A DNA stretch of 64,000 nt from positions 1 to 64,000 of the forward strand of contig JADQCB010000002.1 in NCBI GenBank assembly GCA_016278325.1, given 5' to 3'. A model generated the notes under the pieces. The model was not told where the DNA came from and searched no databases. It worked only from the letters and a program-made list of their open reading frames with translations. Origin of the DNA: Actibacterium sp. GTDB lineage: Bacteria > Pseudomonadota > Alphaproteobacteria > Rhodobacterales > Rhodobacteraceae. The translations under genes were made by a program, and so were the position numbers. Shown here in pieces: positions 7,347-25,702 of the stretch. How positions within the stretch are numbered: position 1 is the first letter of the stretch; the number at the start of each line of letters is the position of its first letter.

Positions 7347-7377
7347 TTGACCTTCCAGCGCTGGAGGCCCCCACTTG
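7347..7377 (+). promoter_or_regulatory. Second CueR-type box, towards copZ
   Basis: TTGACC at 7347-7352 is followed by TTCCAGCGCTGGAGG, with a perfect CCAGCGCTGG core palindrome, facing copZ. It resembles the copA box at TTGACCTTCCAGC. The -10 position (about 7372-7377, CACTTG) is poor, so the element may be a weak promoter that depends fully on activator. Confidence 0.65.
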
Positions 7378-7403
7378 TGACCAGTGATGCAAAGGAGGCC
7401 CGA

Positions 7404-7601
7404 ATGACCCGCTTCAAAGTTCCCGACATGAGCTGCGACCATTGCACCGCCGCCATCGAACGCGCAATCAAGGCCGTCGACCCGGTCGCCACGGTCGAAT
7501 GCGACCTGGACAAACGCATGGTAAAGGTCGACAGCGCGACCGACACCGACACCCTTATCGCCGCTTTGCACAGCGCCGATTACCCAGCAACCCCGGCCTG
7601 A
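7404..7601 (+). CDS. copZ: Copper chaperone CopZ (HMA domain)
   Basis: A 65-residue stand-alone heavy-metal-associated domain: [20 protein letters not shown] with the Cu(I)-binding C-x-x-C at residues 11-14, then the beta-alpha-beta-beta-alpha-beta pattern of the fold. It should carry Cu(I) to the CopA metal-binding domains and to CueR. AAAGGAGG at 7391-7398 sets the start. It is divergent from copA and followed 14 bp later by a DUF302 gene. A further in-frame start at 7347 would lie inside the CueR box and is rejected. Confidence 0.92.
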
Positions 7602-8411: not shown

Positions 8412-9518
8412 TCAGGATTTCGGCAGCACCGGGGCCGAGCGATCGAGCGCAAGCTCGGCATCCGAGAACACCCAGGGCCCGCGCAGGCCCGGCACACCCT
8501 CGGGCGCGATCCGCAGCCCGCGCGCCACAACCTGCGGATCGGCGAAAACCTGGTCCAGCGTGTTGATCGGACCGGCGGGAACGGTCGCCGCCTCAAGCGC
8601 GCGCAGAAGATCGGCCGAGCCTTGCTGCGCGATCCGGGCCGACAGCAAAGGCTCCAGCGCGGCGCGATTGGCAACCCGGTCGGCATTGGTGGCAAAACGC
8701 GGATCATCGGCCAGGGCCGGCATTTGCAGAACCCCGCACAGGCGCCGGAACTGGCCGTCATTGCCGACCGCGACGATTACATGCCCGTCGGCGGTGGCGA
8801 AGACCTGATAGGGCACGATATTGGGATGCGCATTGCCCTGGCGCACCGGTGCCTTGCCGGTGGCCATGAAATTCATCGCCTGATTGGCCAGTGTCGCCGT
8901 GGCGCAATCCATCAGCGCCATGTCGATATACTGCCCCCGCCCGGTGGCGTGGCGCTGTTCGATCGCGGCGAGGATCCCGATCGCCCCGTAAAGCCCGGTC
9001 AGGATATCCGTGACCGCCACGCCCAGCTTCTGCGGCGGGCCGTCCGGCTCTCCGGTGATCGACATCAGCCCCGACATGCCCTGGATCAGGAAATCGTAAC
9101 CGGCCCGGTCGGCATAGGGACCGGTCTGCCCGAAACCGGTGATCGAGCAATAGACCAGCCGCGGGTTGGCCGCCGACAGGCTGTCATAATCCAGCCCGTA
9201 TTTCGCCAGCCCGCCGCGCTTGAAATTTTCCACCAGGATATCGGCATCCTGCACCAGCTCGCGCACCCGCGCCTGCCCCTCCGGGGTGCGGAAATCGGCG
9301 ACGACCGAGGTCTTGCCCCGGTTGCAGGCATAGAAATAGGCCGCGCTGCGGTCGCCGTCGCGCTCGATGAAGGGCGGGCCCCAGCGGCGGGTGTCATCGC
9401 CCTCGGGCGCCTCGACCTTGATCACCTCGGCGCCGAGATCGGCCAGGACCTGGCCGATCCATGGCCCGGCCAGGATGCGGGCCAGCTCGACCACCTTGAG
9501 CCCTTGCAGCGGCCGCAT
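8412..9518 (-). CDS. Class III (CaiB/BaiF) CoA transferase, probably glutarate-type
   Basis: A 368-residue family III CoA transferase: [30 protein letters not shown] at the N-terminus, then W-G-P-P-F-I, the catalytic Asp in [14 protein letters not shown] near residue 180, and [11 protein letters not shown]. It moves CoA between acyl-CoA and a free carboxylic acid. Its start overlaps the stop of the glutaryl-CoA dehydrogenase gene by one base (TGATG), so the likely reaction is succinyl-CoA + glutarate (or a close dicarboxylate) to glutaryl-CoA. Substrate assignment rests on the neighbour. It is the fourth gene of a sigma-54-type operon starting at 12474. Confidence 0.88.
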
Positions 9519-10738
9519 CAGAAGAACGCTTGCAGCCCGGTCTGGGCGCGGCCCAGGATCAGGGCGTGAACGTCATGCGTGCCTTCATAGGTGTTCACCG
9601 TCTCGAGATTGATCATGTGGCGGATCACCTGGTATTCCTCGGAAATGCCATTGCCGCCATGCATGTCGCGGGCCGCACGCGCGATATCCAGCGCCTTGCC
9701 GCAATTGTTGCGCTTGATCAGCGAGATCATTTCCGGCGCCGCGCGCCCCTGATCCATCAACCGCCCGACCTGCAATGCCGCCTGAAGACCCAGCGTTATC
9801 TCGGTCTGCATGTCGGCCAGCTTCTTCTGGAACAGTTGCATCTGTGCCAGCGGCTTGCCGAACTGCTTGCGGTCGAGCCCGTATTGCAGGGCCGCGTGCC
9901 AGCAGAACTCGGCCGCGCCCATCACCCCCCAGGCGATGCCATAGCGCGCCCGGTTGAGGCATCCGAACGGCCCTTTCAGCCCCTCGACACCGGGCAGCAG
10001 CGCATCTTCGCCCACCTCGACACCATCCATCACGATCTCGCCGGTGGTCGAGGCGCGCAGGCTGAGCTTGCCGTCGATCTTCGGCGCGGACAGGCCCTTC
10101 ATGCCCTTTTCCAGCACGAAGCCCCTGATCTTGCCGCCATGCGCCTCGGACCTGGCCCAGATCACGAAGACATCGGCGAAGGGGCTGTTCGAGATCCACA
10201 TCTTGCTGCCGGTCAGGCGATAACCTGTTTCGGTTCGTTCGGCGCGGGTCTTCATCGCGCCCGGGTCGCTGCCGGCATCCGGTTCGGTCAGGCCGAAACA
10301 GCCGATCAATTCGCCCGAGCACAGGCCGGGCAGGAATTTCTTCCGCTGCGCCTCGGTGCCATACGCGTAGATCGGGTAGATCACCAGAGAGCTTTGCACC
10401 GACATCATCGAGCGATAGCCCGAATCGACGCGCTCGATCTCGCGCGCGATCAACCCGTAAGTGACATAGGACGCGCCCAGCCCGCCATATTCCTCGGGCA
10501 GGGTCGCGCCCAGCAGGCCCGCCGCGCCCATCTCGGCGAACAGCGCCGGCTCGGCGCGCTCTTCGCGATAGGCGGCGGTGACACGCGGGGCAAGCTTGTC
10601 ATCGGCGAAGGCCCGCGCCCCGTCGCGCAGCATCCGCTCTTCCTCGCTCAGTTGATCCTCCAGCCGCAGCGCGTCTTCCCAGTCGAAGCGGGACATGTCG
10701 GGCGAATCCTTGGCGGGTGTCACGGTGGCGTCCATCAT
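9518..10738 (-). CDS. gcdH: Glutaryl-CoA dehydrogenase-type acyl-CoA dehydrogenase
   Basis: A 406-residue FAD-dependent acyl-CoA dehydrogenase. It has the helical N-terminus ([19 protein letters not shown]), the middle-domain signature [19 protein letters not shown], and the C-terminal catalytic Glu in [20 protein letters not shown], the arrangement found in glutaryl-CoA dehydrogenase. The family oxidises and decarboxylates glutaryl-CoA to crotonyl-CoA and passes electrons to ETF. It lies between DUF4387 and the CoA transferase; together the last two genes make a glutarate-to-crotonyl-CoA route. A related dicarboxylyl-CoA substrate is possible because the operon starts with AtuA-like and DUF4387 genes, not lysine-degradation genes. 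Confidence 0.9.
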
Positions 10739-10749
10739 GCTGTTGATCC

Positions 10750-11076
10750 TCAGGCAGCGTCGTCGATCTCGATATCCAGTAACGGTGCATATTGCTGCGC
10801 GCCGAAAATGTCACCATCCCCCGCGCTGCCGCTGGGGCGATCGCGCAAAATGGTGAACTTTATCGCATAGGCCGGGTCGTATTCGACGAAATCGGTGATT
10901 CGCGCCGGATCGATCTTCAGCAACCGGCTGATCGATCCGCGCGACAGCGCACCGGACCGCTTGACCAGGTCATAGGCGGCGGCCTCGCGGAAGATCACGT
11001 CGAAGGTGATCTTGTCGGTGCCGGCATTCTTGCTGCGAATGGTCTTGGCCAGATCGCTCAGTTTCTTGACGGACAT
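10750..11076 (-). CDS. DUF4387 domain protein
   Basis: A 108-residue soluble protein of the DUF4387 family: [20 protein letters not shown], then D-V-I-F, and [20 protein letters not shown]. Members are nearly always encoded directly behind an AtuA/DUF1446-like protein, as here (18 bp gap), and probably form a complex or subunit with it. AGGAGG followed by GGCCCCAT precedes the ATG. The family has no established reaction that I know of. In this operon it is followed by glutaryl-CoA dehydrogenase and a CoA transferase, so a role in preparing a carboxylic acid substrate is plausible but inferred. Confidence 0.85.
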
Positions 11077-11094: not shown

Positions 11095-12474
11095 TCAGGC
11101 GTCTGCGAAGGTCTTTTCGCCGACGATTGCGGTTTCGATCGGGAAAAGGTCCAACGGCTTTTCCACGGCCATCGTGTGGTTCAATGTCCAGCGATGCGCC
11201 GGGCTGGCCGGCAGAACCTCGTCGAACACGAAGGAGACGCCGCCTGCGGTGCCTTTCACGTCGGGCAGCCGGGCATAGAAAAGCTGCCGGGTGCCGGTGA
11301 TGGCCACTTCCTCGGCCATCTCGCGGGTCGGCGCGACCCCCTGGACGACGACCAGCACCTCGTGCCCGGGCCTGTCGCGCAGCGGCTCCATCTCGCCCAT
11401 GATCCCGTCGCGGCCGAACACGTTGAAATGAAGTTCCCAACCGTCCGGGCCGAACCGCTCTTCGACCTGGCGGCGGCCCCAGGCCATCACCTCGTCGACA
11501 TTGGCGATGGTATAGGGGTCGCGGATGCCGGCCATGCCGACATAGCGTTCGCCGACCTTGCCCGAACCTTCCAGCTTTACCCGCAATTCTTCGGCCGGGA
11601 CAAAGCGCATCCCCGTCACCCTTGTGGTCTTTTCCGAGACCTGTTCGTAATGGCAATCTGTCATGTCCAGCATGCCGCCGGCGACAAACTCGTGATACGG
11701 GTTGGAGCGTTCATACATCGCGTGCCCGGCGACCGAGGCGATGGTGCAGCGCTGTTCGGGATGCATGGCCGTGACCTCGACCCAGTCCCGGGTAATCTCG
11801 CCCAGGACGGTTTCCTTGGCGCCATAGGGTTCGGCACAGAAGGAGGCGCATTCCAGCACCTTGCCGAGATAGTAGGACTGCGCCTCGGGAAAGCCGTGAT
11901 AGAGCGCGGGCGCGGCGAACACCGCGCTGTCGGAACAGCGCCCGCCGATGATCACGTCGCATTTCTGCTCCAGCAGCGAAACGAACGGGTGAACACCGGC
12001 CATCGCCACGATGCGGGTTGTCGCGTCGAGCTCGTCCTCGCTCAGCTCGTCACGGGCATCGAGCCCCCGGATCGCCGAGCCCGAGCGGATCCGGCCGCGG
12101 ACAAGCTCCTTGTCCAGCTCGGAGTAGAACCAGCCGATGCGGAAGGCCGGAAGGTCATGGCGCCGGGCAATGTCGCGGATCATCTGGACATACATGTCCA
12201 CCCGCGAGTTCGACCCGGTATCCCCGGCCGACCCGATGATCATCGGCACGTCCAGCTCGCGCGCGGCAAGCAGCATCTGTTCCAGGTCGTGTTCCTGCCA
12301 GGACGCGGGGCTGGCACAGGTATCGCTGCCCAGCGGAACCGGGCCGATATCGTCGCTGCCGGAATCGGCGGCGATGTAGTCGGGCTTTTGCGCCACGCCA
12401 AGGCGGAAGCTTTCAACCTTGAGCGGGGCAAATCCCAGGTGGCCATTGGGGCAAATGATCTTGAGCGACTTCAT
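11095..12474 (-). CDS. AtuA-family (DUF1446) protein
   Basis: A 459-residue protein of the AtuA/DUF1446 family, named after acyclic-terpene utilisation. It begins KIICPNGHLGFA, continues with Y-I-A-A-D-S-G-S-D-D-I-G and IIGSAGDTGSNSRVD, and has C-D-V-I-I-G-G-R-C-S-D-S-A-V-F near residue 175. No signal peptide or membrane helix is seen. The reaction of the family is not settled. Paired with DUF4387 it heads an operon with gcdH and a CoA transferase, none of which are terpene genes, so the atu name should not be taken as function. Its promoter is a clear -24/-12 sequence 32 bp upstream. GGAGAG precedes the ATG. Confidence 0.85.
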   Translation of the reverse strand: MKSLKIICPNGHLGFAPLKVESFRLGVAQKPDYIAADSGSDDIGPVPLGSDTCASPASWQEHDLEQMLLAARELDVPMIIGSAGDTGSNSRVDMYVQMIRDIARRHDLPAFRIGWFYSELDKELVRGRIRSGSAIRGLDARDELSEDELDATTRIVAMAGVHPFVSLLEQKCDVIIGGRCSDSAVFAAPALYHGFPEAQSYYLGKVLECASFCAEPYGAKETVLGEITRDWVEVTAMHPEQRCTIASVAGHAMYERSNPYHEFVAGGMLDMTDCHYEQVSEKTTRVTGMRFVPAEELRVKLEGSGKVGERYVGMAGIRDPYTIANVDEVMAWGRRQVEERFGPDGWELHFNVFGRDGIMGEMEPLRDRPGHEVLVVVQGVAPTREMAEEVAITGTRQLFYARLPDVKGTAGGVSFVFDEVLPASPAHRWTLNHTMAVEKPLDLFPIETAIVGEKTFADA

Positions 12475-12506: not shown

Positions 12507-12522
12507 TGCATTTTCCGTGCCA
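12507..12522 (-). promoter_or_regulatory. Sigma-54 (-24/-12) promoter of the atuA-like operon
   Basis: On the minus strand the sequence reads TGGCACGGAAAATGCA: a perfect TGGCAC -24 element, ten bases between GG and GC, and ATGCA at -12 (consensus TTGCA). The predicted start of transcription is about 12496, giving a 22-base leader before the ATG at 12474. The spacing is exactly right and an rpoN and a sigma-54 activator gene lie next door. Confidence 0.85.
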
Positions 12523-12547
12523 ACCGCAGCTGAACGTCAAGTTGCTG

Positions 12548-12562
12548 TTTTACATTGTAAAA
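12548..12562. promoter_or_regulatory. AT-rich perfect palindrome between enhancer sites and promoter
   Basis: TTTTACA-T-TGTAAAA is a perfect inverted repeat with 7-bp arms, 26 bp upstream of the -24 element and 30 bp downstream of the putative enhancer pair. It could be an operator of another factor or a bendable segment in the looping region. No copy is seen at the other sigma-54 promoter near 20350. Confidence 0.45.
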
Positions 12563-12592
12563 ACTAAACGGGTTGCCGACCCGACGGCCCGA

Positions 12593-12632
12593 TTGCGCGC
12601 AGGTCACGCGGCGTGGTGCAAATTTCACGCCT
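12593..12632 (-). promoter_or_regulatory. Putative activator (enhancer) site pair of the atuA-like operon
   Basis: Two related 19-bp sites start 21 bp apart: TTGCGCGCAGGTCACGCGG (12593-12611) and TGGTGCAAATTTCACGCCT (12614-12632). The first shares TTGCGCGCA and TCACGC with the site at 20453 ahead of the other sigma-54 promoter. They lie 84-124 bp upstream of the -12 element, the normal place for a bacterial enhancer, and overlap the 3' end of the activator gene itself. Confidence 0.6.
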
Positions 12633-13626
12633 CGCGCATTTCCAGCTTGATCATCTGGTGGCGCAGGGCATGGCGGCTGATCTTCAGCATTGCCGCCGCA
12701 TCCTGGATATTGTGCCCCGTGGCCGAAAGCGCCTGCGCGATCAGGTCGCGCTGGAAATTCGCGGTGGCATCGTGAAACCCCTTTGCCGGTGCCTCGCCGG
12801 CGGCTTCCTCAACGCTGGGAACCGTGTCGCGCCCGGCACGCACGGTGCGCAGGATCCGGTCGGGCATGTGCCGCGGCAGCACCTCGTCATCATCTTCGAG
12901 AATGAAAATCCGCTCCAGCAGGTTTTCCAGCTCTCGCACATTTCCCGGCCAGGGATAGCGGAGGAAAATCTCGCGCACCTCGGGCGACAGGCCGCTGATG
13001 GTGCGGCCATATTGGCGGTTGAACTTGTCGATGAAATGCCGGGCCAGAATCAGCACATCCTCGCCCCTTTCGCGCAGCGGCGGGATATTCAGCGCGATGA
13101 CCTGCAACCGGTAATAGAGATCCTCGCGGAAATTTCCGGCCTTGACCTCGGACAGCAGCACCTTGTTCGTCGCGGCGATGAAGCGCACGTCCACCGGGGT
13201 CATCCGCACCGCACCGACACGGCGAAACTGATAGCTGTCGAGCAGCGACAGGAGCTTTGCCTGCAACGTCAGGTCCAGCTCGCGGATCTCGTCGAGAAAG
13301 ATCGAGCCCTTGTTGGCGGCCTCGACCAGGCCGATCTTGCGTTCGGTGGCGCCGGTAAAGGCCCCCTTTTCGTGACCGAAAAGCTCGGATTCCATGAGGT
13401 TGGCCGGGATCGCGGCGCAGTTTATGTCGGCGAATTCCTTGCCCGCGCGGGACGACTTGGCGTGGATGATGCGCGCCACCAGCCCCTTGCCGGTGCCGGT
13501 CTCGCCATAGATCAGCACCGTACGGGCCGGGCTTTTCGCCACCCGGTCGATCAGCCCCTGAAGGTTCCGGATCGTTTCGTGCGCGCCAATCAGCTTGTCG
13601 GCATAATCCGCCATTGCCCGTCCCAT
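12625..13626 (-). CDS. Sigma-54-dependent activator lacking a sensor domain
   Basis: A 333-residue bacterial enhancer-binding protein made only of an AAA+ domain and a Fis-type DNA-binding domain. Visible motifs are Walker A GETGTGKG (residues 41-48), the sigma-54 contact loop GAFTGA (88-93), Walker B GSIFLDEI (108-115), the arginine-finger region FREDLYYRL, and a C-terminal helix-turn-helix (NIQDAAAMLKISRHALRHQM). There is no receiver, GAF, PAS or other sensory domain, as in PspF. I chose the ATG at 13626 (GGGGGA 4-5 bp upstream, 11 bp after the previous stop). It is the last gene of the transporter-C45 operon and should activate both nearby -24/-12 promoters. Confidence 0.93.
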   Translation of the reverse strand: MGRAMADYADKLIGAHETIRNLQGLIDRVAKSPARTVLIYGETGTGKGLVARIIHAKSSRAGKEFADINCAAIPANLMESELFGHEKGAFTGATERKIGLVEAANKGSIFLDEIRELDLTLQAKLLSLLDSYQFRRVGAVRMTPVDVRFIAATNKVLLSEVKAGNFREDLYYRLQVIALNIPPLRERGEDVLILARHFIDKFNRQYGRTISGLSPEVREIFLRYPWPGNVRELENLLERIFILEDDDEVLPRHMPDRILRTVRAGRDTVPSVEEAAGEAPAKGFHDATANFQRDLIAQALSATGHNIQDAAAMLKISRHALRHQMIKLEMREA

Positions 13627-13637
13627 CGGTTCCCCCG

Positions 13638-14741
13638 TCAGGACGTAAGCGCGATACTCTGCCATTCGCCCGAACAGGGATTGTCGAGGCAAACATACAT
13701 CACCCGCGTGCGACAGCAATAAGCCACGCTCGACAGGGTGCGCGTGCCCCCTGCGGCGGTGCCATGCTGGCAGACCGGCGCAAGCAGCGGATCGTCGCCG
13801 TCGCGGTGTTGCGCCATGAGGCCGGCGGCATCGCCCACGCCCCAGTCGCGGCCCGGCAGCACCCGGTCGAGGAAGGCGCGCCGGCTGTGCGAGCTGTCCT
13901 CGATCCGGCTGCGCGTATCGACCAGCGTCTGCGGCGCCAGCGCGGTGGTGGTGAAATGGTTGGTTCGGCAGACCACCGGCGCGGTTTCCACCGCCACGCC
14001 GGCCGCACCCAGTTCGACCGCGGCCACCTCGCCGGCCGCATCGGCCAGGACCAGCGTGCCCCCCCCCGCATGGGCGGATCGGCGGATCATCGCCACCGCC
14101 TCGGCCACGCTTGCGGTTTCGGCCAGAAGCCGTGTCATCAGGAAATATCGCAGCCAGCCGACCGCGTGCCGACGCACGCCAACCTGCGTGTCCACCACTG
14201 CCAGGCCGGCCGCATTGAGCCCGCTGGAATAGGCGCCCGGGCTGCCAAGGCTGCCCAGGCAGAGCATCGGCCCGTGCTTCAGGTCGGGCCCGTCATGCCG
14301 GAACACCCGCTGGATGCCGGCATGCCCGCCCGAGAAATCGCGGTTCTTGACGGTAAGCGGCCCGTCCGGCCCGTCCGCCACGGCCCAGGCGCTGCACCCG
14401 TCCGACGCCCCGCCCTGCGCCTGCGCCAGATCGCGCAGCGTGCCCAGGTGCAGATGCTGGAAAAGGCTGTCCTCGGGCAGATCGAAACCCGCGGCGATAC
14501 CCGAAAGCTCGGCCATGTCATCGGGGCATTCGGCCCGGGCAAAGACCTTCTGCTGGTCGAGATAGGCGCGGGCTGTATCGCCCAGAAGCCCCGCCTCGCG
14601 CGCCGCGGCAAGCCGGTCGCGGGTGATCTGGCGCACTTCGGGCCACAGGTCTGCGCCGGCGGAGATCTGGGCCTGGCCGCGCTCGAACGGGTCCCCGACC
14701 AACGACAGCACATCGGCATTTTCCGTCGCCCGCATCGTCAT
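13638..14741 (-). CDS. C45 family self-processing acyltransferase/hydrolase
   Basis: A 367-residue Ntn-fold protein of peptidase family C45 (isopenicillin N acyltransferase/acyl-CoA:6-APA acyltransferase family). The family cleaves itself before a Cys that becomes the N-terminal nucleophile; here Cys116 in SDGCSAW fits, followed by V-K-N-R-D-F. Family members hydrolyse or transfer amide-linked acyl groups. No signal peptide is seen, so it should act in the cytoplasm on imported substrate. Its start overlaps the preceding ATPase stop by ATGA, and it is followed by the activator gene, so it is an integral part of the dipeptide-type transporter operon. The true substrate is unknown. Confidence 0.85.
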   Translation of the reverse strand: MTMRATENADVLSLVGDPFERGQAQISAGADLWPEVRQITRDRLAAAREAGLLGDTARAYLDQQKVFARAECPDDMAELSGIAAGFDLPEDSLFQHLHLGTLRDLAQAQGGASDGCSAWAVADGPDGPLTVKNRDFSGGHAGIQRVFRHDGPDLKHGPMLCLGSLGSPGAYSSGLNAAGLAVVDTQVGVRRHAVGWLRYFLMTRLLAETASVAEAVAMIRRSAHAGGGTLVLADAAGEVAAVELGAAGVAVETAPVVCRTNHFTTTALAPQTLVDTRSRIEDSSHSRRAFLDRVLPGRDWGVGDAAGLMAQHRDGDDPLLAPVCQHGTAAGGTRTLSSVAYCCRTRVMYVCLDNPCSGEWQSIALTS

Positions 14742-15763
14742 TGCACCGGGTCCAGAAGCGACAGGTTCTCGGCCAGCCGGTGACAGGCGGCCTGATGTCC
14801 GTTTCCGACGGGTTCGGTCCGGGGCGCCGTCTTTCGACAGATATCGATCGCCAGCGGGCAACGGGTGTGGAACTTGCAGCCCGCCGGCGGCGACAGCGGC
14901 GACGGCAGATCGCCGGTCAGGCGCACCCGCGCCTTGCGCGCCGAGGTCTCGACCTCGGGCACCGCCGACATCAGGCTTTGGGTATAGGGATGGCGCGGGC
15001 GGGCCAGGATCGACTCCACCGGCCCCATCTCGACGATCTCGCCCAGATACATCACCGCCACCCGGTCGCTGAGATAGCCGATCACCGAGATATCGTGCGA
15101 TATGAAAAGATAGGTCAGCCCCATTTCCTGTTTCAGGTCGGTCAGCAATTCGATGATTTGCGCCTGGATCGACACGTCCAGCGCCGAGACCGGTTCGTCG
15201 CAGACGATGAATTCGGGATTGCTGACCAGCGCCCGCGCGATACCGATGCGCTGGCGCTGCCCGCCCGAGAACTGGTGCGGATAGCGATCCAGATGCGCCG
15301 TCTTCAGGCCCACCTTCTCGACGATCGCGGCCACCTTGTCGCGCATTTCGGCCGGCGTCGGCGCCAGCCCGTGCAGCTTGAGCGGCAGCCCGACGATCTC
15401 GGCCACGGTGCGACGCGGATTGAGCGAGGCATACGGATCCTGGAAGATGATCTGCATCCGCCGGCGCATCGCCTTCATCGCCGCGTCGTCCAGCCCGGTC
15501 ACATCCACCCCGTCAAATGTGACCGTGCCGGTCGTGGGTTCGTGCAGCCGCAGGATCGAGCGCCCCAGGGTGGATTTGCCGCACCCGCTTTCGCCGATCA
15601 GGCCCAGAACCTCGCCCGCGCGGATGTCGAAACTGACATCGCTGACCGCCTGGACCCGCGTCTGCTGGCGCCCCGACAGGCGGTCGGCCAGGTTATGCCG
15701 GCCCAGATAGGTCTTGGACAGGCCGCGAATGTCGAGCAACGGATTGTCTGCCTGCGGATTCAT
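14738..15763 (-). CDS. Peptide-type ABC transporter ATPase (DppF/OppF-like)
   Basis: A 341-residue ATP-binding subunit. It carries Walker A GESGCGKST, the Q-loop at IIFQDPYASLNPRR, the ABC signature FSGGQRQR, Walker B FIVCDEPVSALD, and the switch His in FISHDISV. The C-terminal oligopeptide-ATPase extension includes GCKFHTRCPLA-x5-C with cysteines that in homologues can hold an Fe-S cluster. The ATG at 15763 overlaps the stop of the DppD-like gene by ATGA. It pairs with that protein to drive the permease dimer at 16782-18691. Substrates are probably di- or oligopeptides or amide-like compounds. Confidence 0.92.
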   Translation of the reverse strand: MNPQADNPLLDIRGLSKTYLGRHNLADRLSGRQQTRVQAVSDVSFDIRAGEVLGLIGESGCGKSTLGRSILRLHEPTTGTVTFDGVDVTGLDDAAMKAMRRRMQIIFQDPYASLNPRRTVAEIVGLPLKLHGLAPTPAEMRDKVAAIVEKVGLKTAHLDRYPHQFSGGQRQRIGIARALVSNPEFIVCDEPVSALDVSIQAQIIELLTDLKQEMGLTYLFISHDISVIGYLSDRVAVMYLGEIVEMGPVESILARPRHPYTQSLMSAVPEVETSARKARVRLTGDLPSPLSPPAGCKFHTRCPLAIDICRKTAPRTEPVGNGHQAACHRLAENLSLLDPVQ

Positions 15764-16785
15764 GCCTCGGCCTCCTGACTGGCAATCGCGGTCTCGACCC
15801 GGATGCAGCGCGCCATGCGCCGCGGGCCCGCCGGCTGCATCGCGATGGTCTTCAGGCAATCGTCGCCCGCCAGCGGGCAGCGCGAATAGAACCGGCATTG
15901 CGCCGGCAGGTCGATCAGGTCGGGCACCTGCCCCTGGATCGGGTGTATCCGTTCGCCCCGCAATGCCGGGCGCGGGATCGAGGCCAGAAGGCCCCTTGTA
16001 TAGGGGTGCTGCGGTGCCGCGATGACCTCTTGCGTCGGCCCCTGCTCGACCACCTGGCCGGCATACATCACCATCACGCGGTCGCAATGCTCGGCCACGA
16101 CGCCCAGATCGTGGGTGATCAGCACAACGCTCATGCCAAGCCTGGCGCGGATGTCGCTGATCAGCTCCAGCACCTGCGCCTGGATCGTCACGTCCAGCGC
16201 GGTGGTCGGCTCGTCCGCGATCAGCAGCTTGGGGCGCGAGGCCAGCGCGATGGCGATCATGATGCGCTGGCGCATCCCGCCAGAGAATTCATGCGGATAC
16301 TGGCGCAGCCGTTCCGCCGGAGAGGGGATGCCGACAAGGCCCAGCATCTCGACCGATCGCGCGCGGATCGCCTGGCGCCGCGCGGCACCGCGCGGCGGAA
16401 GTTCCTCGTCATGGGCTTCCAGCATCTCGCGGATCTGCTCGCCCACGGTCAGCGCGGGGTTCAGCGCGGTCAGCGCGTCCTGCATCGTCATCGCGATGTC
16501 GCGGCCCCGGATCGCCCGCATCTGGCGCGGGTCGAGCGCGCGCAGGTCCTGCCCCTCGAACAGGATCGAGCCGGCGTCGATCCGCCCCGGCGGGCGCACC
16601 AGCCCCATCACCGAGCCGAAGGTGACGCTCTTGCCCGAACCGGATTCGCCGACCACGCCCAGGCACTCGCCCCGGCGCACGGTCACGTCCACCCCGTCCA
16701 CCGCACAGACGGCGCCGGCGCGGGTGTCGAAGATCGTCCTCAGGCCGGAAACCTCCAGCAGGGTGCTTTCGTCTCGCTGCATCAT
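15760..16785 (-). CDS. Peptide-type ABC transporter ATPase (DppD/OppD-like)
   Basis: A 341-residue ATP-binding subunit with Walker [11 protein letters not shown]-loop DIAMTMQDALTALNP, signature FSGGMRQR, Walker [13 protein letters not shown], and switch His LITHDLGVV. The C-terminal OppD extension has CRFYSRCPLAGDDC. I used the first of two tandem ATGs (16785) because it overlaps the permease stop by ATGA. It forms the heterodimeric motor with the adjacent DppF-like ATPase. The whole operon (20257 down to 12625) has the order binding protein, permease B, permease C, ATPase D, ATPase F, C45, activator. Confidence 0.92.
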   Translation of the reverse strand: MMQRDESTLLEVSGLRTIFDTRAGAVCAVDGVDVTVRRGECLGVVGESGSGKSVTFGSVMGLVRPPGRIDAGSILFEGQDLRALDPRQMRAIRGRDIAMTMQDALTALNPALTVGEQIREMLEAHDEELPPRGAARRQAIRARSVEMLGLVGIPSPAERLRQYPHEFSGGMRQRIMIAIALASRPKLLIADEPTTALDVTIQAQVLELISDIRARLGMSVVLITHDLGVVAEHCDRVMVMYAGQVVEQGPTQEVIAAPQHPYTRGLLASIPRPALRGERIHPIQGQVPDLIDLPAQCRFYSRCPLAGDDCLKTIAMQPAGPRRMARCIRVETAIASQEAEA

Positions 16786-17687
16786 TCGTGGAACCTCGGA
16801 TCGAAAGCATCGCGCAGGCCCTGGCTTGCCACATTGATCGCCAGAACCAGCAGCAGGATCGCAACGCCCGGGAAGGTGCTGACCCACCAGGATTGCATGA
16901 TGAAGGCGCGGCCATCGGCCACCATCGCACCCCAGGATGCGGTCGGCGGCTGCACCCCCAGCCCGAGGAAGCTCAGGCTTGCCTCAAGGATGATCACATG
17001 CGCCATGCGGATGGTGGACACCACGATCACCGGCGACAGGATGTTGGGCAGGATCTCGCGCGTCATGATATGCCGGCTGGACGCCCCCAGGGCGCGGGCG
17101 GCCTCTACATATTCCAGCTCGCGCGTGGCCAGCGTCTCGCCCCGCACCACGCGGCAGGGAATCACCCACTCCTTGTAGACCAGGGCAAGGATGATGTTGA
17201 TCAGCCCCGGCCCCATCATCGCCATCAGGCCGATCGCGAAGATCAGATAGGGAAAACCGAGCAGGATATCGACGACGCGGGAAATCACCGTGTCCACCCA
17301 GCCGCGCAGGAACCCCGCGGCCAGCCCGGCAATGATCCCGATCGTGGTGGCGACCAGAACCACCGCCGCGCCCACGAAGATCGAGATCCGCGCGCCATAG
17401 ATGATGCGCGAAAGGATGTCGCGCCCCAGCGCATCGCAGCCCAGCACATAGGCCCAGTCGCCGCCTTCCTGCCAGGCCGGCGGCTGCAGGCGTCGGAACA
17501 GATCGGTCGTGTTCGGGTCGTGCGGCGCGATGAAAGGCGCGAAGATCGCCATCAGCACGAACAGCAGCACGACCACGGCGCTGCCCAGGGCAAGCCGGTT
17601 CTCGGCGAAGGTCGCCATGTTGCGACGAAAGATCGAATTCCCGGCCGGGGACGCCACCGCGGCCGAGCCGTTGTCGATGGCGGTCAT
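16782..17687 (-). CDS. Peptide-type ABC transporter permease (DppC-like)
   Basis: A 301-residue inner-membrane permease. A cytoplasmic N-terminus (NSIFRRNMATFAENRLALG) leads into the first helix, then a periplasmic loop with the family segment GCDALGRDILSRIIYGARIS, and four or five more helices. The EAA loop is visible as EYVEAARALGASSRHIMTREILPN. It overlaps the DppB-like gene by ATGA and the DppD-like gene by ATGA, so the four cistrons are tightly coupled. It forms the translocation pore with the DppB-like subunit. Confidence 0.92.
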   Translation of the reverse strand: MTAIDNGSAAVASPAGNSIFRRNMATFAENRLALGSAVVVLLFVLMAIFAPFIAPHDPNTTDLFRRLQPPAWQEGGDWAYVLGCDALGRDILSRIIYGARISIFVGAAVVLVATTIGIIAGLAAGFLRGWVDTVISRVVDILLGFPYLIFAIGLMAMMGPGLINIILALVYKEWVIPCRVVRGETLATRELEYVEAARALGASSRHIMTREILPNILSPVIVVSTIRMAHVIILEASLSFLGLGVQPPTASWGAMVADGRAFIMQSWWVSTFPGVAILLLVLAINVASQGLRDAFDPRFHE

Positions 17688-18691
17688 AGCTTCACCCTCG
17701 GGTTCAGGACGGTATAGAGAATGTCGGCCAGGAAATTCAGCATCACATAGGTCAGCGCGTAGAACAGCACCGCGGCCTGAACCAGCGGGTAGTTGCGCAC
17801 GAAAATGCTCTCGACGACCAGCCGTCCCAGGCCGGGCCAGCCAAAGACCGTCTCGACGATCATGTTGCCGCCCAGCAGAGAGCCGGTCTCGATCGCCGCC
17901 ACCGACACGGTGGGGATCAGCGCGTTCTTCAACGCATGCCGGAACAGGATGCGATTGCGCCGCAGGCCCTTGGCCTCGGCAAAGGTGACATAGTCCTGGC
18001 GCATCACTTCGAGCATGGATGTCCGTGTCACCCGCATCAGGATCGCGGTCATCGGCAGGCCCAGCGTGATCGCCGGCAGAATGATATGCGACAGCGCGTC
18101 GAGAAAGGCGTCGGGACGCCCGCGCAACAGCGTGTCGATCAGCAGGAAATGGGTGATCGGCTCGATCTCGCTGGAAAATCCGATCCGCCCGGACACCGGC
18201 AGGATCTGAAGCTGCACCGCGAACAGCATCAACAGCAGGATACCGAACCAGAACCCGGGCAGGGACACGCCCAGCAAAGAGCCCACGGTGGCCAGCCGGT
18301 CGGTCATGGAATTCTTCTTGATCGCGGCCACGACCCCCAGCGGGATCGCCGTGACCAGCGCGATGATAAGCGCCACGAGGCTGAGCTCGATGGTCGCGGG
18401 CAACCGCTCGGCAATAACGTCGATCACCGGGCGCCGGTGATAGAAGCTTTCGCCGAAATCCCCCTGCACCGCGTTTCCGAGAAACAGGAAAAACCGCTCA
18501 TGCACGGGCCGGTCCAGCCCGAGATCCTCGCGCATCGCGGCTTCCTGCTCGGCGGTGATGTTCTGGTCGCCGATCATGATTTCCACCGGGTCGCCCGGGG
18601 TCAGGGTGATCATCACAAAGACGATCACGCTGACGCCCAGAAGCACCGGAATCAGTTGAAGCAGACGTTCAATCAATCTTGCCAGTGACAT
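17684..18691 (-). CDS. Peptide-type ABC transporter permease (DppB-like)
   Basis: A 335-residue permease: first helix LIPVLLGVSVIVFVMITL followed directly by PGDPVEIMIGD, the classic DppB start, then a periplasmic region containing GDFGESFYHRRPV, and further helices. The EAA loop is YVTFAEAKGLRRNRILFRHALKNA. It is the first permease after the binding protein (27-bp gap) and forms the pore with the DppC-like subunit. Confidence 0.92.
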   Translation of the reverse strand: MSLARLIERLLQLIPVLLGVSVIVFVMITLTPGDPVEIMIGDQNITAEQEAAMREDLGLDRPVHERFFLFLGNAVQGDFGESFYHRRPVIDVIAERLPATIELSLVALIIALVTAIPLGVVAAIKKNSMTDRLATVGSLLGVSLPGFWFGILLLMLFAVQLQILPVSGRIGFSSEIEPITHFLLIDTLLRGRPDAFLDALSHIILPAITLGLPMTAILMRVTRTSMLEVMRQDYVTFAEAKGLRRNRILFRHALKNALIPTVSVAAIETGSLLGGNMIVETVFGWPGLGRLVVESIFVRNYPLVQAAVLFYALTYVMLNFLADILYTVLNPRVKL

Positions 18692-18718
18692 GGCTGGGGC
18701 TCCCCGGTGGAAGGTCGG

Positions 18719-20257
18719 TTACTTCAGGCAGGCATCATGCAGGTTGATGCGGCTGTCGGGGCTGGGCTGCCAGCCGCTCAGGCGCTTCGACACACCGTAA
18801 ATGTCCTGCGGCACCCAAAGATAGGCATAGGGAACATCCGCCGCCGCGATCGCTTCGGCCTTGCGGTACATTTCGGCCCGCTTTTCACGATCGACCTCGG
18901 TCGCGGCCTCTTCCAGCAGCTTGTCGACCTCGGGGTTGGAATACCCCGCCGAATTGCCGCGTGCCGCGGTATGATGTGTCGGCATGAAGATGCCCTGCGG
19001 ATCGAGCGAGCCGTTGCCCCAGGAGGTGAAATACATGTCACCGGTCTTTTCACCGCCCTCGGTGCGCCATTTCTGCGACAGCAGCCCGCTTTCGCCCACC
19101 GCGACCTGGGTCTTGATCCCGGCCTTGGTCAGCAGCGACGCAACCGCCTGCGCGGTATCCTTGTAAGAGCCCTGCACGTCCATCGTCACCTCGATCCCGT
19201 CGGGATAGCCCGCTTCGGCCAGAAGCGCGCGCGCCTTTTCGGGGTCATAGCTGTAGCCATCCAGATCCTTGTTCTTGCCGAACGCATCGGGGCTGAGAAT
19301 GCCGTTGATGGCCTCGGCATTGCCGCCAAGGATCTTGTCGATGATCAGCTTCTTGTCGATGGCATGCGCCACCGCCTGGCGCACGCGGATATCGTCGAAG
19401 ATTTCGCCCTTCACGTTCATCGCGATGAAGAAACTGCGCGTGCCGTTCACCGTCATGACCTCGGCGTTCGGGCTGTTCCTGACCTGCTCGACCGCGAAGG
19501 GCGGCAGTTCATTGATGATATGCACGTCGCCGGCCAGCAGCGCGGCCACGCGCGAAGCGGATTCGGGAATGATCTTGAAGATCGCCCGCTCGACACAGGC
19601 CTTGCCCACCGGCGGGATGCCCGGCGCGCCGCCATAATAGTCCTCGAAACGCTCCATGATGACCGAGTCGCCCTTGCGCCACTCGACCAGCTTGAACGGG
19701 CCGGTTCCGTTCACCTGGGTCGCCAGACCCTCGGTGCCCACCTTCTCGACGAAATCCTTCGATACGACCTCCTGGAAGGGCAGCATCGCGGGCAGCAACG
19801 GCCACGGCTCGGAAAGGGTGACGCGCACGGTGTCGCCATTCACGATCTCGGCCGACTTGAACGGCCCCAGAAGGCTTGCGCGCGGGCTCGTCTGCCCGTC
19901 GCCCGTGCCGCCCTCGCTGGTCAGCCGGTCGAGCGTGAATTTCACGTCCTCGGGGGTCAGCTCGGTGCCATCGTGAAACAGGATGCCCTTGCGGATCTTG
20001 AAATCATAGACCGTGGGCGAGACCTGGGTGTAGGATTCCGCGATCTGCGGCAGGATGTTCATCCCGGAATCGCGGGTCAGGATCCCGTCATACATGTTCC
20101 GGATAATGGTTTCCGTCTCGCGGTTGCGGTGATTGCCCGGATCCAGCGTGTTCGCGTCGGCGGTGAAGCCGACGACCAGATCCTCGGCGATTGCCGCCGG
20201 CGCCATGCTTCCCAGCGCCATTGCCGAGGCCAGCATGATCCGTGTGAGATGTTTCAT
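18719..20257 (-). CDS. Dipeptide/oligopeptide-type ABC substrate-binding protein
   Basis: A 512-residue periplasmic SBP family 5 protein. The N-terminus MKHLTRIMLASAMALGSMAP with A-A-I-A/E is a Sec signal peptide, with mature start near residue 25 (EDLVVGFTADANTLDPGNH). Family features are YTQVSPTVYDFKIRKGILFHDG with the downstream L-T-P-E-D-V-K-F-T-L-D-R, and the carboxy-terminal lobe with YAYLWVPQDIYGV. It is the first gene of the seven-gene operon and lies behind the sigma-54 promoter at 20344-20359. It determines ligand choice, but the ligand cannot be read from the sequence; peptide, glutathione-like and nickel-type family members share this fold. Confidence 0.92.
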   Translation of the reverse strand: MKHLTRIMLASAMALGSMAPAAIAEDLVVGFTADANTLDPGNHRNRETETIIRNMYDGILTRDSGMNILPQIAESYTQVSPTVYDFKIRKGILFHDGTELTPEDVKFTLDRLTSEGGTGDGQTSPRASLLGPFKSAEIVNGDTVRVTLSEPWPLLPAMLPFQEVVSKDFVEKVGTEGLATQVNGTGPFKLVEWRKGDSVIMERFEDYYGGAPGIPPVGKACVERAIFKIIPESASRVAALLAGDVHIINELPPFAVEQVRNSPNAEVMTVNGTRSFFIAMNVKGEIFDDIRVRQAVAHAIDKKLIIDKILGGNAEAINGILSPDAFGKNKDLDGYSYDPEKARALLAEAGYPDGIEVTMDVQGSYKDTAQAVASLLTKAGIKTQVAVGESGLLSQKWRTEGGEKTGDMYFTSWGNGSLDPQGIFMPTHHTAARGNSAGYSNPEVDKLLEEAATEVDREKRAEMYRKAEAIAAADVPYAYLWVPQDIYGVSKRLSGWQPSPDSRINLHDACLK

Positions 20258-20343
20258 CAGTCAAGTCTCCCATCATTGGTTGAACCGTTTTTGGCTTTTT
20301 GGGTGCGCGCCTGTCTTCGCCAGGGCGCCGCCACCTTCTTGTA

Positions 20344-20359
20344 TGCAATCCCCATGCCA
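20344..20359 (-). promoter_or_regulatory. Sigma-54 (-24/-12) promoter of the transporter-C45-activator operon
   Basis: Minus strand reads TGGCATGGGGATTGCA: TGGCAT at -24 (consensus TGGCAC), ten bases between GG and GC, and a perfect TTGCA at -12. Predicted transcription start is about 20333, with a leader of about 76 bases before the ATG at 20257. It lies in the 235-bp gap between the rpoN stop and the binding-protein gene. Confidence 0.85.
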
Positions 20360-20452: not shown

Positions 20453-20492
20453 TTGCGCGCATTTCACGCAAGGGCGCGAGTTTTTCGCGCGA
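20453..20492 (-). promoter_or_regulatory. Putative activator (enhancer) site pair of the transporter operon
   Basis: Two 19-bp sites again 21 bp apart: TTGCGCGCATTTCACGCAA (20453-20471, an inverted repeat TTGCG/CGCAA) and GCGCGAGTTTTTCGCGCGA (20474-20492, GCGCGA/TCGCGC arms). The first matches 15 of 19 bases of the site at 12593. They lie about 107-147 bp upstream of the -12 element and end exactly at the rpoN stop codon. Confidence 0.6.
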
Positions 20493-21857
20493 TCAGCCGG
20501 CCCTACCGGCGGCCCCCTTGCGCCGCCGCGCGGCAGAGCCCGGGATGTTCATAAGCGTGCGATACTTGGCAACCGTGCGGCGCTGGATCTGCACCCCGCC
20601 GCTGCGCAATGTCTCGGTGATGCGCGCATCGCTCAGCGGGGCGTGGGCGGGTTCCTCGGCGATCATCCTGCGAATGCGCTGCTTGATTGCGCCAGTGGAC
20701 ACGTTGTCGGCGGCGTCATCCGAACCCGCGCGCGGAAGGCCGCGGGAAAAGAAGCTGCGCAGATCCAGCACCCCGCGCGGCGTGTCGATCGTCATCCCGC
20801 GCGTGATCCGGCTGACGGTGCTGGCATGCAGCTTTACCGCGCCGGCCACGTCCTGCAACTTCAACGGTGCGGGATGTTCGCTCGCGCCGTCAAGATAGGC
20901 CGACTGACGCCGCGCGATTTCCGCCGCGACGGCCAAGGTGCTGGCGTTGCGCTGTTCGACCGCGCGCTTCAGCCCCCGCGCCCCGGCCAGGGCCTCGGCC
21001 ACGAAGGCCTCGCGCTTCTCGTCGGCGGGCACGAGATCGTCGCGGATGACGACACCCGGCAGGGTCGAGCCGTTCAGCTCGACCGCCCATTGCCCGCCCT
21101 GTTCGACCAGCAGCAGATCCGGCGCGCGGATCGGGCCGTCGCCCTGGCCAAAGGCCAGCCCCGGCTTGGGGTCGAACTGGCGCAAGGTTGCAAGGCAATC
21201 GTGCAGCCGCGCCATGTCGCAGCCGCAGATTTCGGCCAGTGCCTGCATCCGGCCGTCGGCGACCATGTCCAGATGGTCCAGCAGGCGATCGAGCTCCGGG
21301 CTCAGCAATCCACGGTCGGCGGCCTGAAGCCGCAGGCATTCGGCCAGCGACCGCGCGAACAGGCCGGCCGGTTCGAACTGTTGCAGGACCGCCAGGACCG
21401 CCTGCGCCTCGGCCATGGACACCCCGGCATCGGCGGCAACCGCCTCGACACTGTCGCCAAGCCACCCGAACGGTTCCAGCACCTGCAGGAAAGCAAGGGC
21501 GATCCGTTTCTGCCCGGGATCGGAAATCGCCAGGCCGACCTGACGTTCCACATGATCGATCAGCCCGCCCGGCGGCGCGGCGATCGTGTCGGCCAGGCCC
21601 GCCTGTGCCTGCTCGGCGGCTTGCCGCCGCGCGGTATCGCTGGGCGCGGCGGGAATGGAAGGCCGCCCTGCCCCGTCGCGCAGGCCGTCGCCGGGCGCCT
21701 GGCGAAGCTCCAGGAACGGGTTCTGCCGGACCTTCTCGACAAGGAAGCCCTGCAACTCGGCATTGTTGAACCGCAACAGGGAAATCGCCTGTCGCAATTG
21801 CGCCGTCATCGCGAGCGTGCGTTTCTGTCGAAGGTTGAGTGACGATGTCAGCTGCAT
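20493..21857 (-). CDS. rpoN: RNA polymerase sigma-54 factor, accessory copy
   Basis: A 454-residue sigma-54. Region I begins MQLTSSLNLRQKRTLAMTAQ and continues through the Leu/Gln-rich segment to FLVEKVRQNPFLEL. The core-binding domain, the helix-turn-helix (LKLHASTVSRITRG) and the carboxy-terminal RpoN box RRTVAKYRTLMNIP are all present, so the gene looks intact. I chose the ATG at 21857; an upstream TTG is poorer. Housekeeping rpoN is usually beside lptB, hpf and ptsN, which are absent, so this is probably an extra copy like those known in Rhodobacter. It follows a transporter operon by 90 bp and faces two -24/-12 promoters downstream. Confidence 0.93.
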   Translation of the reverse strand: MQLTSSLNLRQKRTLAMTAQLRQAISLLRFNNAELQGFLVEKVRQNPFLELRQAPGDGLRDGAGRPSIPAAPSDTARRQAAEQAQAGLADTIAAPPGGLIDHVERQVGLAISDPGQKRIALAFLQVLEPFGWLGDSVEAVAADAGVSMAEAQAVLAVLQQFEPAGLFARSLAECLRLQAADRGLLSPELDRLLDHLDMVADGRMQALAEICGCDMARLHDCLATLRQFDPKPGLAFGQGDGPIRAPDLLLVEQGGQWAVELNGSTLPGVVIRDDLVPADEKREAFVAEALAGARGLKRAVEQRNASTLAVAAEIARRQSAYLDGASEHPAPLKLQDVAGAVKLHASTVSRITRGMTIDTPRGVLDLRSFFSRGLPRAGSDDAADNVSTGAIKQRIRRMIAEEPAHAPLSDARITETLRSGGVQIQRRTVAKYRTLMNIPGSAARRRKGAAGRAG

Positions 21858-21947: not shown

Positions 21948-23564
21948 TCAGGCAGCGCCGTCACCCTGCGCGGCCAGCGTGCGGTCCAGCCAGCCGACCT
22001 CCATCTCGGGGACCGAGGACAGCAAGAGCGCGGTATAGTCGGCATGCGGCGGTGACAGGATATCCTCTTTCATGCCCTTTTCGACCACGCGGCCCTGATA
22101 CATCACCACGATCTCGTCCGAGATGGCGCGCACCGTGGCGATGTCATGAGTGATGAAGATATAGCTGACGCCCAGATCCTTCTGCAACCGCATCAGCAGC
22201 TTGAGAATGCCGTCCTGCACGATCTGGTCCAGCGCCGAGGTCACCTCGTCGCAAATGATCACCTCGGGATCGGCGGCCAGCGCACGGGCAATGCAGATCC
22301 GCTGTTTCTGGCCCCCCGAAAGCTCCCCCGGCAGGCGATCGAGAAAACTGTCGTCGAGCTCGATCATTTGCAGAAGCTCGGAAACCCGGGCATCGACCTC
22401 GGCGCCGGTCTTTGCGAAATAGAACTGCACCGGGCGGCCGATGATCTCGCGCACCGTCTGGCGCGGGTTCATCGCGGTGTCGGCCATCTGATAGATCATC
22501 TGGATCCGGCGCAGATCCTCCTTGCTGCGGCCCGCCAGATCGGGGGCCAGATCCTGACCGTTGAACCGCACGCCCCCGTCGGTCGGCGGCAAAAGCCCGG
22601 TGATCACCCGCGCCGCGGTCGATTTGCCCGAACCGGATTCGCCCACGACCGCGACCGTCCGCCCGCGCGGCACGTCAAAGCTGACATCCTCCAGCACCGG
22701 CCGGGTGCCATAGGCGGCCGTCACCCCGCGCACTTCCAGCACCTTGTCGGCGCTGCCCTCGCCCGGCTTGCGGATCGAGCGCACGGCCCAGAGCGACCGG
22801 GTATAGGGCTGTTTCGGTGCGCGCAGCATGGTTTCGGTGTCGGCTTCCTCGATCTCCTCGCCGTGGCGCAAGACCTTGATACGGTCGGCCATCTGCGCCA
22901 CCACCGCCAGATCGTGGGTGATATAGATCGCCGCGGTATCGAACCGCTTCACCGCGCCGCGCATTGCCGCCAGCACATTGACCTGCGTGGTCACGTCCAG
23001 CGCGGTCGTGGGTTCGTCGAACACGATCAGGTCGGGGCGGCAGGCCATCGCCATTGCCGTCATCGCACGCTGCAACTGCCCGCCCGACACCTGGTGCGGA
23101 AAGCGGTCGCCGAAATGCTCCGGGTCGGGCAGATCCATCGCGCGATACAGCTCCACCGCCGTTTCGCGGGCATTGTCCGGGCGCAGCACCCCGTGGCGGA
23201 TCCCGGATTCGACCGTCTGATCGAGCAGTCGATGCGCCGGGTTGAACGCCGCTGCCGCGGATTGCGCGACATAGGCGATCCGCGCACCGCGCAAGCGTTG
23301 CTTCTGGCGCTCCGACGCCCGCATCAGGTCGACCCCGTCGAACAGGATCTCGCCGCCGGTCAGCCGGCAGCCGGGCCGGGCGAACCCCATCGCCGCCAGA
23401 CCGAGGGTCGATTTCCCCGCCCCGGATTCGCCGATCAGGCCGAGAACCTCGCCCTTGCGCAGGGTCAGATCCACACCCTTGATGATCTCGTGCCACTGCT
23501 CGTCGGCGAAACCGTCGATCCGGACATCGCGCATTCGCAGCAGGATATCGGCCTCAGAACTCAT
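21948..23564 (-). CDS. Fused double-domain peptide-type ABC ATPase (DppD-DppF)
   Basis: A 538-residue protein with two complete ABC domains in tandem, as in YejF. The first half has Walker [10 protein letters not shown], signature VSGGQLQR and Walker [13 protein letters not shown]; the second has Walker [10 protein letters not shown], signature LSGGQKQR and Walker [15 protein letters not shown]. It supplies both motors of the second peptide-type transporter. Its start overlaps the preceding permease by 11 bp. rpoN lies 90 bp downstream on the same strand and could be cotranscribed, though the gap leaves room for its own promoter. Confidence 0.92.
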
Positions 23565-25451: not shown

Positions 25452-25702
25452 AGGCCCTGCCCCCTCCCGTTTCTTGTTGGATCCGGCCGCATGTGGCGGT
25501 GGCCGTTTTGTTAGTGACGCTAACCTTATGTCAGGGCATCATTGCTTGGCAACCGGCTTTGTGTCTGGCCTGCGGCGCGAAGAATTGTATAGTTGCCGGG
25601 CGACCGATCGCTTCCCCCACATCGCGACGCCACGGCGGTCCGGGGCGGGGATGTGCGACACGGACCCAAGAACGATGAATGACACAGCAGGAGGATCGAA
25701 AG

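What the first reader, a model, noticed from the sequence alone, without database searches (positions are those of the whole stretch)
12507..20359. Two matching sigma-54 promoters beside a private rpoN and activator
Two -24/-12 promoters with exact GG-N10-GC spacing lie at 12507-12522 (TGGCACGGAAAATGCA) and 20344-20359 (TGGCATGGGGATTGCA), each directly ahead of an operon. Between and beside them are a sensorless sigma-54 activator (12625-13626) and an intact extra rpoN (20493-21857). All parts of a closed regulon (sigma factor, activator, promoters) are within 13 kb. I know of no description of such a module for this set of target genes.
Basis: partly seen in the sequence, partly recalled or inferred. 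Interest (0 to 1): 0.85.

Follow-up and report, generated by a model that had tools for sequence, protein, structure and literature searches.

The report
Peptide-uptake cluster carrying its own sigma-54
A bacterial gene cluster that seems to import and break down an unknown nutrient carries its own sigma factor, activator, enhancer sites and promoters, which may let it work in bacteria that otherwise lack this kind of transcription.

Summary
Two GG-N10-GC promoters lie where stated, each ahead of an operon. Both are conserved, in 19 and 22 other loci, and each lies behind 17-bp palindromes (putative enhancer sites, often paired about 21 bp apart) whose distances step by about one DNA turn. A composite site-plus-promoter pattern matches 3 places in the genome, 2 of them these. 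The rpoN is not "extra": it is the only sigma-54 gene found in this 99.76% complete genome. The unit rpoN - peptide ABC transporter - C45 hydrolase - sensorless activator - AtuA/DUF4387 is shared by 20 genomes. In Neorhizobium and Saccharospirillum, which have rpoN elsewhere, the module has none beside it. In the one sampled family genome with the activator but no rpoN, the activator has lost the GAFTGA threonine and no -24/-12 was found. "Closed regulon" is only partly right here: a second activator with a sigma-54 loop (AprX-like) exists. In 8 relatives the module rpoN is the only one and no AprX-like gene was found. One-to-one RpoN/activator pairs are known in Cereibacter sphaeroides; this is a new pair with new targets. 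Inducer and chemistry are unknown; AtuA/DUF4387 match a solved "citramalate lyase".

The parts
20344..20359 (-). -24/-12 promoter TGGCATGGGGATTGCA ahead of the peptide ABC operon
   Evidence: conserved position in orthologous loci
12507..12522 (-). -24/-12 promoter TGGCACGGAAAATGCA ahead of AtuA-DUF4387
   Evidence: conserved position in orthologous loci
20454..20491 (.). pair of 17-bp palindromic putative enhancer (UAS) sites, centres 20462 and 20483, 103 and 124 bp upstream of the promoter's TGG
12594..12631 (.). pair of 17-bp palindromic putative enhancer (UAS) sites, centres 12602 and 12623, 80 and 101 bp upstream; the distal site overlaps the end of the activator gene
20493..21857 (-). 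rpoN (sigma-54), 454 aa, the only copy found in the genome
18719..20257 (-). ABC2A, solute-binding protein family 5 (dipeptide/GsiB-like)
17684..18691 (-). ABC2B, permease (function read from sequence, no family search)
16782..17687 (-). ABC2C, permease (function read from sequence, no family search)
15760..16785 (-). ABC2D, ATPase (start chosen by me at an internal ATG; function read from sequence)
14738..15718 (-). ABC2F, ATPase (start chosen by me at an internal ATG; function read from sequence)
13638..14741 (-). C45 family autoproteolytic acyltransferase/hydrolase (AAT; start chosen by me)
12625..13626 (-). sensorless sigma-54 activator (EBP), GAFTGA intact, last gene of the ABC2 operon
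11095..12474 (-). AtuA-family protein, related to a solved citramalate lyase subunit A
10750..11076 (-). DUF4387 protein, related to a solved citramalate lyase subunit B
9518..10738 (-). glutaryl-CoA dehydrogenase-like; downstream, found there only in some relatives
8412..9518 (-). family III CoA-transferase, nearest model succinate--glutarate CoA-transferase (under its cut-off)

Best explanation
This is a largely self-contained sigma-54 regulon. RpoN, encoded just upstream, holds RNA polymerase at two -24/-12 promoters. The sensorless activator binds 17-bp palindromes (about TGCGTGAAATTCACGCA), here 80-124 bp upstream of both promoters, and opens them by ATP hydrolysis through its GAFTGA loop. 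One promoter drives ABC2A-B-C-D-F, the C45 hydrolase and the activator itself, giving positive feedback; the other drives AtuA-DUF4387 and, here, probably the glutaryl-CoA dehydrogenase and CoA-transferase. The products import a peptide-like compound, cleave an amide and act on a hydroxy-acid. Because two thirds of the family lacks sigma-54, the module carries rpoN in cis; in hosts with their own rpoN it need not. Shown by sequence: parts, order, shared palindromes, conservation, one case of co-loss. Inferred: binding, activation, feedback, substrate. With no sensor domain, activity is most likely set by a partner protein or by the activator's own level (guess).
For: Only rpoN in the genome. 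Colinear module, rpoN in cis in 16 of 18 family genomes with the activator. Strict -24/-12 ahead of ABC2A in 17 of 22 rows (3 more with one deviation) and ahead of AtuA in 19 of 24 (4 more), window included. Palindrome matrix trained on one promoter's regions finds a site at the other in 18 of 20 and 19 of 19 regions, against means of 0.7 and 0.8 in 200 shuffles (the starting consensus was typed after viewing both). Distances cluster at 58, 69.5, 80, 91, 102.5 and 114 bp. Four plasmid loci not used in training, in effect two lineages, have promoter and sites in the same phase to within 2.6 bp. Composite pattern: 3 hits genome-wide, 2 of them these, reversed control 1. Two hosts with rpoN elsewhere lack the cis copy. 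Co-loss in G208.
Against: No transcription, binding or mutant data. In this genome an AprX-like activator could share the RpoN. RpoN is poorly conserved (37-57% identity, against 67-81% for the activator). The co-loss case is one genome, and its module lies at a contig end. Monophyly of the module RpoNs is not rejected (p-AU 0.425) but not shown. One of the two palindromes at a promoter is often weak: pairs passed in only 10 of 20 and 12 of 19 regions.
Confidence: 0.85

Rival explanations
1. The rpoN is a general sigma-54 of this organism that happens to lie beside these genes; it also serves the AprX-like activator and possibly other promoters, so the locus is not a closed regulon. (Not exclusive of the best explanation.)
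For: An AprX-like activator (GSFTGA) is present. AprX-like genes go with rpoN across the family: 79 of 97 genomes with the gene have rpoN, against 49 of 297 without it. This genome has only one rpoN.
Against: rpoN is in cis in 20 genomes. Among the 16 family genomes with rpoN in cis, the 6 with 2-3 rpoN all have an AprX-like gene; 8 of the 10 with one rpoN have none at E 1e-110 (Fisher p 0.007; rows share ancestry), which suggests one rpoN per activator. Only G000 and G001 break the pattern.
Confidence: 0.45
2. The activator works with the housekeeping sigma factor, as R. capsulatus NtrC does, and the -24/-12 sequences are relics.
For: Many Rhodobacterales activators have lost the loop (PMC10274813 passages).
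Against: GAFTGA or GSFTGA is intact in 22 of 23 orthologs read and in the window protein; the promoters are conserved. The one ortholog without it is in the one genome without rpoN.
Confidence: 0.04
3. The two promoter-like sequences are chance matches.
For: With 2 mismatches the window count equals chance.
Against: Conservation at both places and upstream palindromes.
Confidence: 0.01

Closest known systems
Cereibacter (Rhodobacter) sphaeroides RpoN1-NifA, RpoN2-FleQ and RpoN3-AprX pairs (PMC11999139: abstract, sections 23 and 24, passages)
   Same: Several rpoN genes in a relative, each studied one working with one activator and its own targets; module RpoNs fall near the four RpoN copies of a four-rpoN genome of the family (G076) in the tree.
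   Different: Different activator (no receiver domain), different targets, and sigma factor, activator and both promoters in one cluster; here it is the sole rpoN. G076, which I take to be C. sphaeroides or close kin from its four rpoN, was not among the genomes with the activator.
PspF-type sensorless activators
   Same: AAA+ plus HTH without a sensor domain; 176-181 bits to PspF chains.
   Different: 250.8 bits to the PspF model TIGR02974, under its cut-off of 443.55; no psp genes among those I identified in the cluster.
Citramalate lyase CmlA/CmlB (PDB 9erq, 9evf; entry names only)
   Same: AtuA and DUF4387 match subunits A and B, E 6e-69 and 2e-21.
   Different: Activity and substrate not tested; the neighbours here (peptide ABC transporter, C45 hydrolase) point to another starting compound.
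Rhodobacterales NtrC without GAFTGA, acting with sigma-70 in R. capsulatus (PMC10274813 passages)
   Same: A similar route out of sigma-54 dependence as suggested by G208 (GSFAGA).
   Different: The window activator keeps GAFTGA; NtrC lost the loop by deletion, G208 by substitution.

Membership tests
sigma-54 (RpoN) | AID, core-binding and DNA-binding domains; TIGR02395 cut-off | tested here: met
sigma-54 (RpoN) | directs transcription from -24/-12 promoters | not testable with these tools
   needs mutants or in vitro transcription
bacterial enhancer-binding protein | AAA+ with Walker A/B, GAFTGA loop and HTH | tested here: met
bacterial enhancer-binding protein | shared upstream palindromes at both targets | tested here: met
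   sequence only, binding not tested:
PspF | TIGR02974 cut-off | tested here: not met
   250.8 of 443.55 bits
C. sphaeroides-type dedicated RpoN/activator pair | one rpoN linked to one activator and its targets (my criterion) | tested here: met
   rpoN in cis in 16 of 18 family genomes with the activator
C. sphaeroides-type dedicated RpoN/activator pair | RpoN copies not interchangeable | not testable with these tools
   needs complementation
C. sphaeroides-type dedicated RpoN/activator pair | no second activator that could share this RpoN | tested here: inconclusive
   a second GSFTGA activator in the window genome; none in 7 of 8 relatives with one rpoN and no AprX-like match, among PF00158 matches of 70 bits or more
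AtuA/DUF4387 citramalate lyase | both subunits present and adjacent | tested here: met
AtuA/DUF4387 citramalate lyase | citramalate lyase activity | not testable with these tools
   needs enzyme assay

The most novel reading that the evidence does not exclude
A portable, self-sufficient sigma-54 operon: sigma factor, sensorless activator, enhancers and two promoters travel as one unit into lineages that have lost sigma-54, where the factor serves little or nothing else and evolves fast because it has so few promoters to recognise. The linkage is dropped when the host already has sigma-54, and the activator sheds its sigma-54 loop when rpoN is lost.
Probability: 0.45. Interest if true: 0.75.

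Novelty: new variant of a known kind. Interest (0 to 1): 0.62.

Why it matters
About two thirds of the sampled family lacks sigma-54 (130 of 394 genomes have a match over the cut-off). This module suggests how a sigma-54 function can persist in such a background, by carrying its sigma factor along, and gives a natural series (rpoN in cis, in trans, lost) with matching changes in the activator and promoters. It offers a small system, one sigma factor, one activator and two promoters, to test how dedicated sigma/activator pairs arise and how an activator leaves sigma-54.

Tried and rejected
"Extra rpoN" rejected: one match in the genome. "Chance promoters" rejected. The idea that the module RpoNs are a separate clade was neither rejected nor shown (p-AU 0.425; in the best tree, RpoNs of G076, G129 and G410 from outside the module fall among them). 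Earlier trees: 27 rows and 46 rows; the latter held a wrongly cut row, L149; L149 was re-cut and the long row L141 dropped. Other genome promoters with the same palindromes: none among the other 14 exact matches nor among the 14 one-mismatch loci scanned (L039, scanned there in the wrong orientation, was re-scanned); only 30 of 695 matches had loci. The composite pattern gave one further hit, C14:34174, not studied. More rpoN-less cases like G208: none in the other 5 genomes of its genus. The DNA around the AprX-like gene showed no clear -24/-12. A search on the word AtuA drowned in Portuguese words. No held paper contains DUF4387. A check of the intergenic position of the 16 exact matches did not re-orient minus-strand loci and is not used.

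The UAS matrix was trained on 39 regions, with the window, L086, L124 and L125 left out; its starting consensus was typed after reading the regions of both promoters, so the held-out test is not fully blind. The distances were typed by hand and mix the stronger and the nearer site; one search repeats this automatically for the 40 of 42 regions with a site of 12 or more. Genome lists were typed; I counted 128 genomes as rpoN-bearing where the tally says 130 over the cut-off (two marginal ones could not be told apart). L217 and L218 are 99% identical and L216 is 94.5% identical to L217 over 4.6 kb, so the three Cupriavidus rows are one lineage.
Full report
What is there. On the minus strand the order is rpoN (20493-21857), promoter (20344-20359), a peptide ABC transporter (ABC2A-F, 20257-14738), a C45 acyltransferase/hydrolase, the activator (12625-13626), promoter (12507-12522), AtuA, DUF4387, a glutaryl-CoA dehydrogenase-like gene and a family III CoA-transferase. 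Gaps from ABC2A to the activator are at most about 41 bp (with starts chosen by me), so the activator is the last gene of the operon that the first promoter would drive; positive feedback follows if the promoter depends on it (inference).

The genome. It is 3.25 Mb in 62 contigs, 99.76% complete. It has one Sigma54_DBD match, the window rpoN. PF00158 gave 10 matches. They fall in eight proteins, of which I read six: only the window activator (GAFTGA) and a response regulator on contig C35 (GSFTGA) have the sigma-54 loop; an NtrC-like protein (my naming) and three others lack it. The two unread ones are weak (about 26 bits). The C35 gene has receiver, AAA+ and HTH domains and lies next to a gene with HATPase and receiver domains. 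It resembles AprX of C. sphaeroides, described as the partner of RpoN3 (PMC11999139; abstract, sections 23-24 and passages read); the name is my assignment by domain make-up and co-occurrence with rpoN. The family of the genome is given only as a code; I take it to be Rhodobacteraceae in the wide sense from the titles of the nearest named loci.

Conservation. Orthologs of the activator (E at most 1e-90) occur in 18 of 394 family genomes; a scan of named genomes gave 23 loci, 11 of them at 69-90% identity, some being the same genomes. The module is colinear. rpoN is in cis in 16 of the 18: 14 seen (window included), and two (G001, G154) where rpoN lies beside ABC2A on a second, broken contig. 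The other two are G065 (rpoN elsewhere) and G208 (none). Four further named loci (L089, L090, L091, L095) also carry it, making 20 genomes. RpoN identity to the window in 17 loci is 37-57%, against 67-81% for the activator in the same loci, so the sigma factor changes faster than its partner.

Promoters and palindromes. Ahead of ABC2A, 17 of 22 rows have the strict -24/-12, 3 have one deviation and 2 (L124, L125) have none; in those two ABC2A follows DUF4387. Ahead of AtuA, 19 of 24 rows are strict, 4 deviate at one place and 1 (L124) has none. Upstream of both lies a 17-bp palindrome, often two copies about 21 bp apart. Trained on one promoter's regions and tested on the other's, sites are found in 18 of 20 and 19 of 19 regions and pairs in 10 of 20 and 12 of 19, against means of 0.7 and 0.8 sites and 0 to 0.01 pairs in 200 shuffles. 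In random 200-bp stretches of the same loci, some of which may overlap real sites, 28 of 950 had a site and 13 of 950 a pair. In the window the only pairs are these two (50 shuffles: mean 0.02). The strongest-site distances from 40 of 42 regions fall in six clusters about 11 bp apart (58, 69.5, 80, 91, 102.5, 114); the phase coherence of the clusters has p 0.018 at 10.5 bp and 0.0001 at 11 bp, the latter period chosen after the fact, and rows share ancestry. This is what an activator that must face its polymerase on one side of the helix would give.

Out of sample. A plasmid search found the activator on 4 records, megaplasmids of Ciceribacter and three Cupriavidus, the latter three closely alike. 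None had been used for training. All four have a -24/-12 ahead of AtuA and palindromes at 80 bp (Ciceribacter, one site) or 122-123, 101-102 and 69-70 bp (Cupriavidus); Ciceribacter also has both elements ahead of ABC2A, the site at 104 bp. None has an rpoN match in the fetched stretch of 21-23 kb. In Cupriavidus the unit is the activator, AtuA, DUF4387 and a TctC receptor, so the constant core is activator plus AtuA/DUF4387 and the transporter varies.

Cis, trans, lost. Neorhizobium petrolearium and a Saccharospirillum MAG have the module without an rpoN match in about 21 kb around the activator, and one rpoN elsewhere. G208 has the activator (55%) but is not among the 141 genomes with an rpoN match; its loop reads GSFAGA and no -24/-12 was found ahead of AtuA or ABC2A, while two palindrome-like sites about 21 bp apart (scores 8.2 and 14.2) remain ahead of AtuA. 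This recalls the known loss of GAFTGA in Rhodobacterales NtrC, reported to work with sigma-70 in R. capsulatus (PMC10274813, passages). It is one genome, with the module at a contig end.

How closed is it? AprX-like genes (E at most 1e-110) occur in 97 of 394 family genomes, 79 of them with rpoN. Among the 16 genomes with rpoN in cis, 6 have two or three rpoN and all 6 have an AprX-like gene; of the 10 with one rpoN, 8 have none; the two exceptions are the window genome and its congener (p 0.007). In those 8, I read all PF00158 matches of 70 bits or more (34 of 87 matches in all): the module activator is the only GxFTGA protein in 7 of 8, G099 having one more. So the closed reading is good for relatives and open for the window genome.

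Substrate. AtuA and DUF4387 match the two chains of PDB 9erq/9evf, named citramalate lyase subunits A and B (entry names only, no paper read). The best NCBIfam match of the solute-binding protein is the glutathione binder GsiB, and all its matches are under the curated cut-offs. Glutaryl-CoA dehydrogenase and CoA-transferase follow in the window, in G001 and in G099, and the dehydrogenase in L087, where the contig ends; they were not found in the other loci, several of which end early. I take the pathway to be uptake of a peptide-like conjugate, amide cleavage and hydro-lyase action on a released hydroxy-acid; this is a guess.

Known or not. One-to-one RpoN/activator pairs are described in C. 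sphaeroides. I saw no paper on this cluster in the listings of searches, and no held paper contains DUF4387; the library lacks most subscription journals.

Noticed in passing
G000 contig C35, about 149154-150554 (L040:7152-8555, minus): AprX-like response regulator with GSFTGA beside a hybrid kinase-like gene and an acetyl-CoA synthetase-like gene; the paper on C. sphaeroides AprX says no kinase lies near its aprX.
   Followed up: partly
L188, L190, L191, L196 (G013, G304, G139): Several other activators in relatives with a single rpoN read GAFPGA or GAMPGA in the sigma-54 loop, a recurrent threonine-to-proline change.
   Followed up: partly
L200 (G193:C63:82266-82769): An activator with an altered loop (RGFTGQ), possibly an RtcR-like protein (name recalled, not tested).
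   Followed up: no
21948-27319: A second peptide ABC transporter (ABC1) lies upstream of rpoN; beside rpoN it was seen only in the window genome and its congener G001.
   Followed up: partly
19933-19947 and about 30571: Two further palindrome-like matches, one inside ABC2A, one about 90 bp ahead of a nadC-like gene (name read from sequence); the number of single sites is near chance (5 against a mean of 2.6).
   Followed up: no
L216-L218 (Cupriavidus megaplasmids): Activator, AtuA, DUF4387 and a TctC receptor form a smaller version of the unit, near an aconitase-like gene in L217.
   Followed up: partly
4714-7392: P-type metal-transport ATPase with two heavy-metal domains and, at 7347-7601, a small metal-binding protein (names from sequence reading, not searched).
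   Followed up: no
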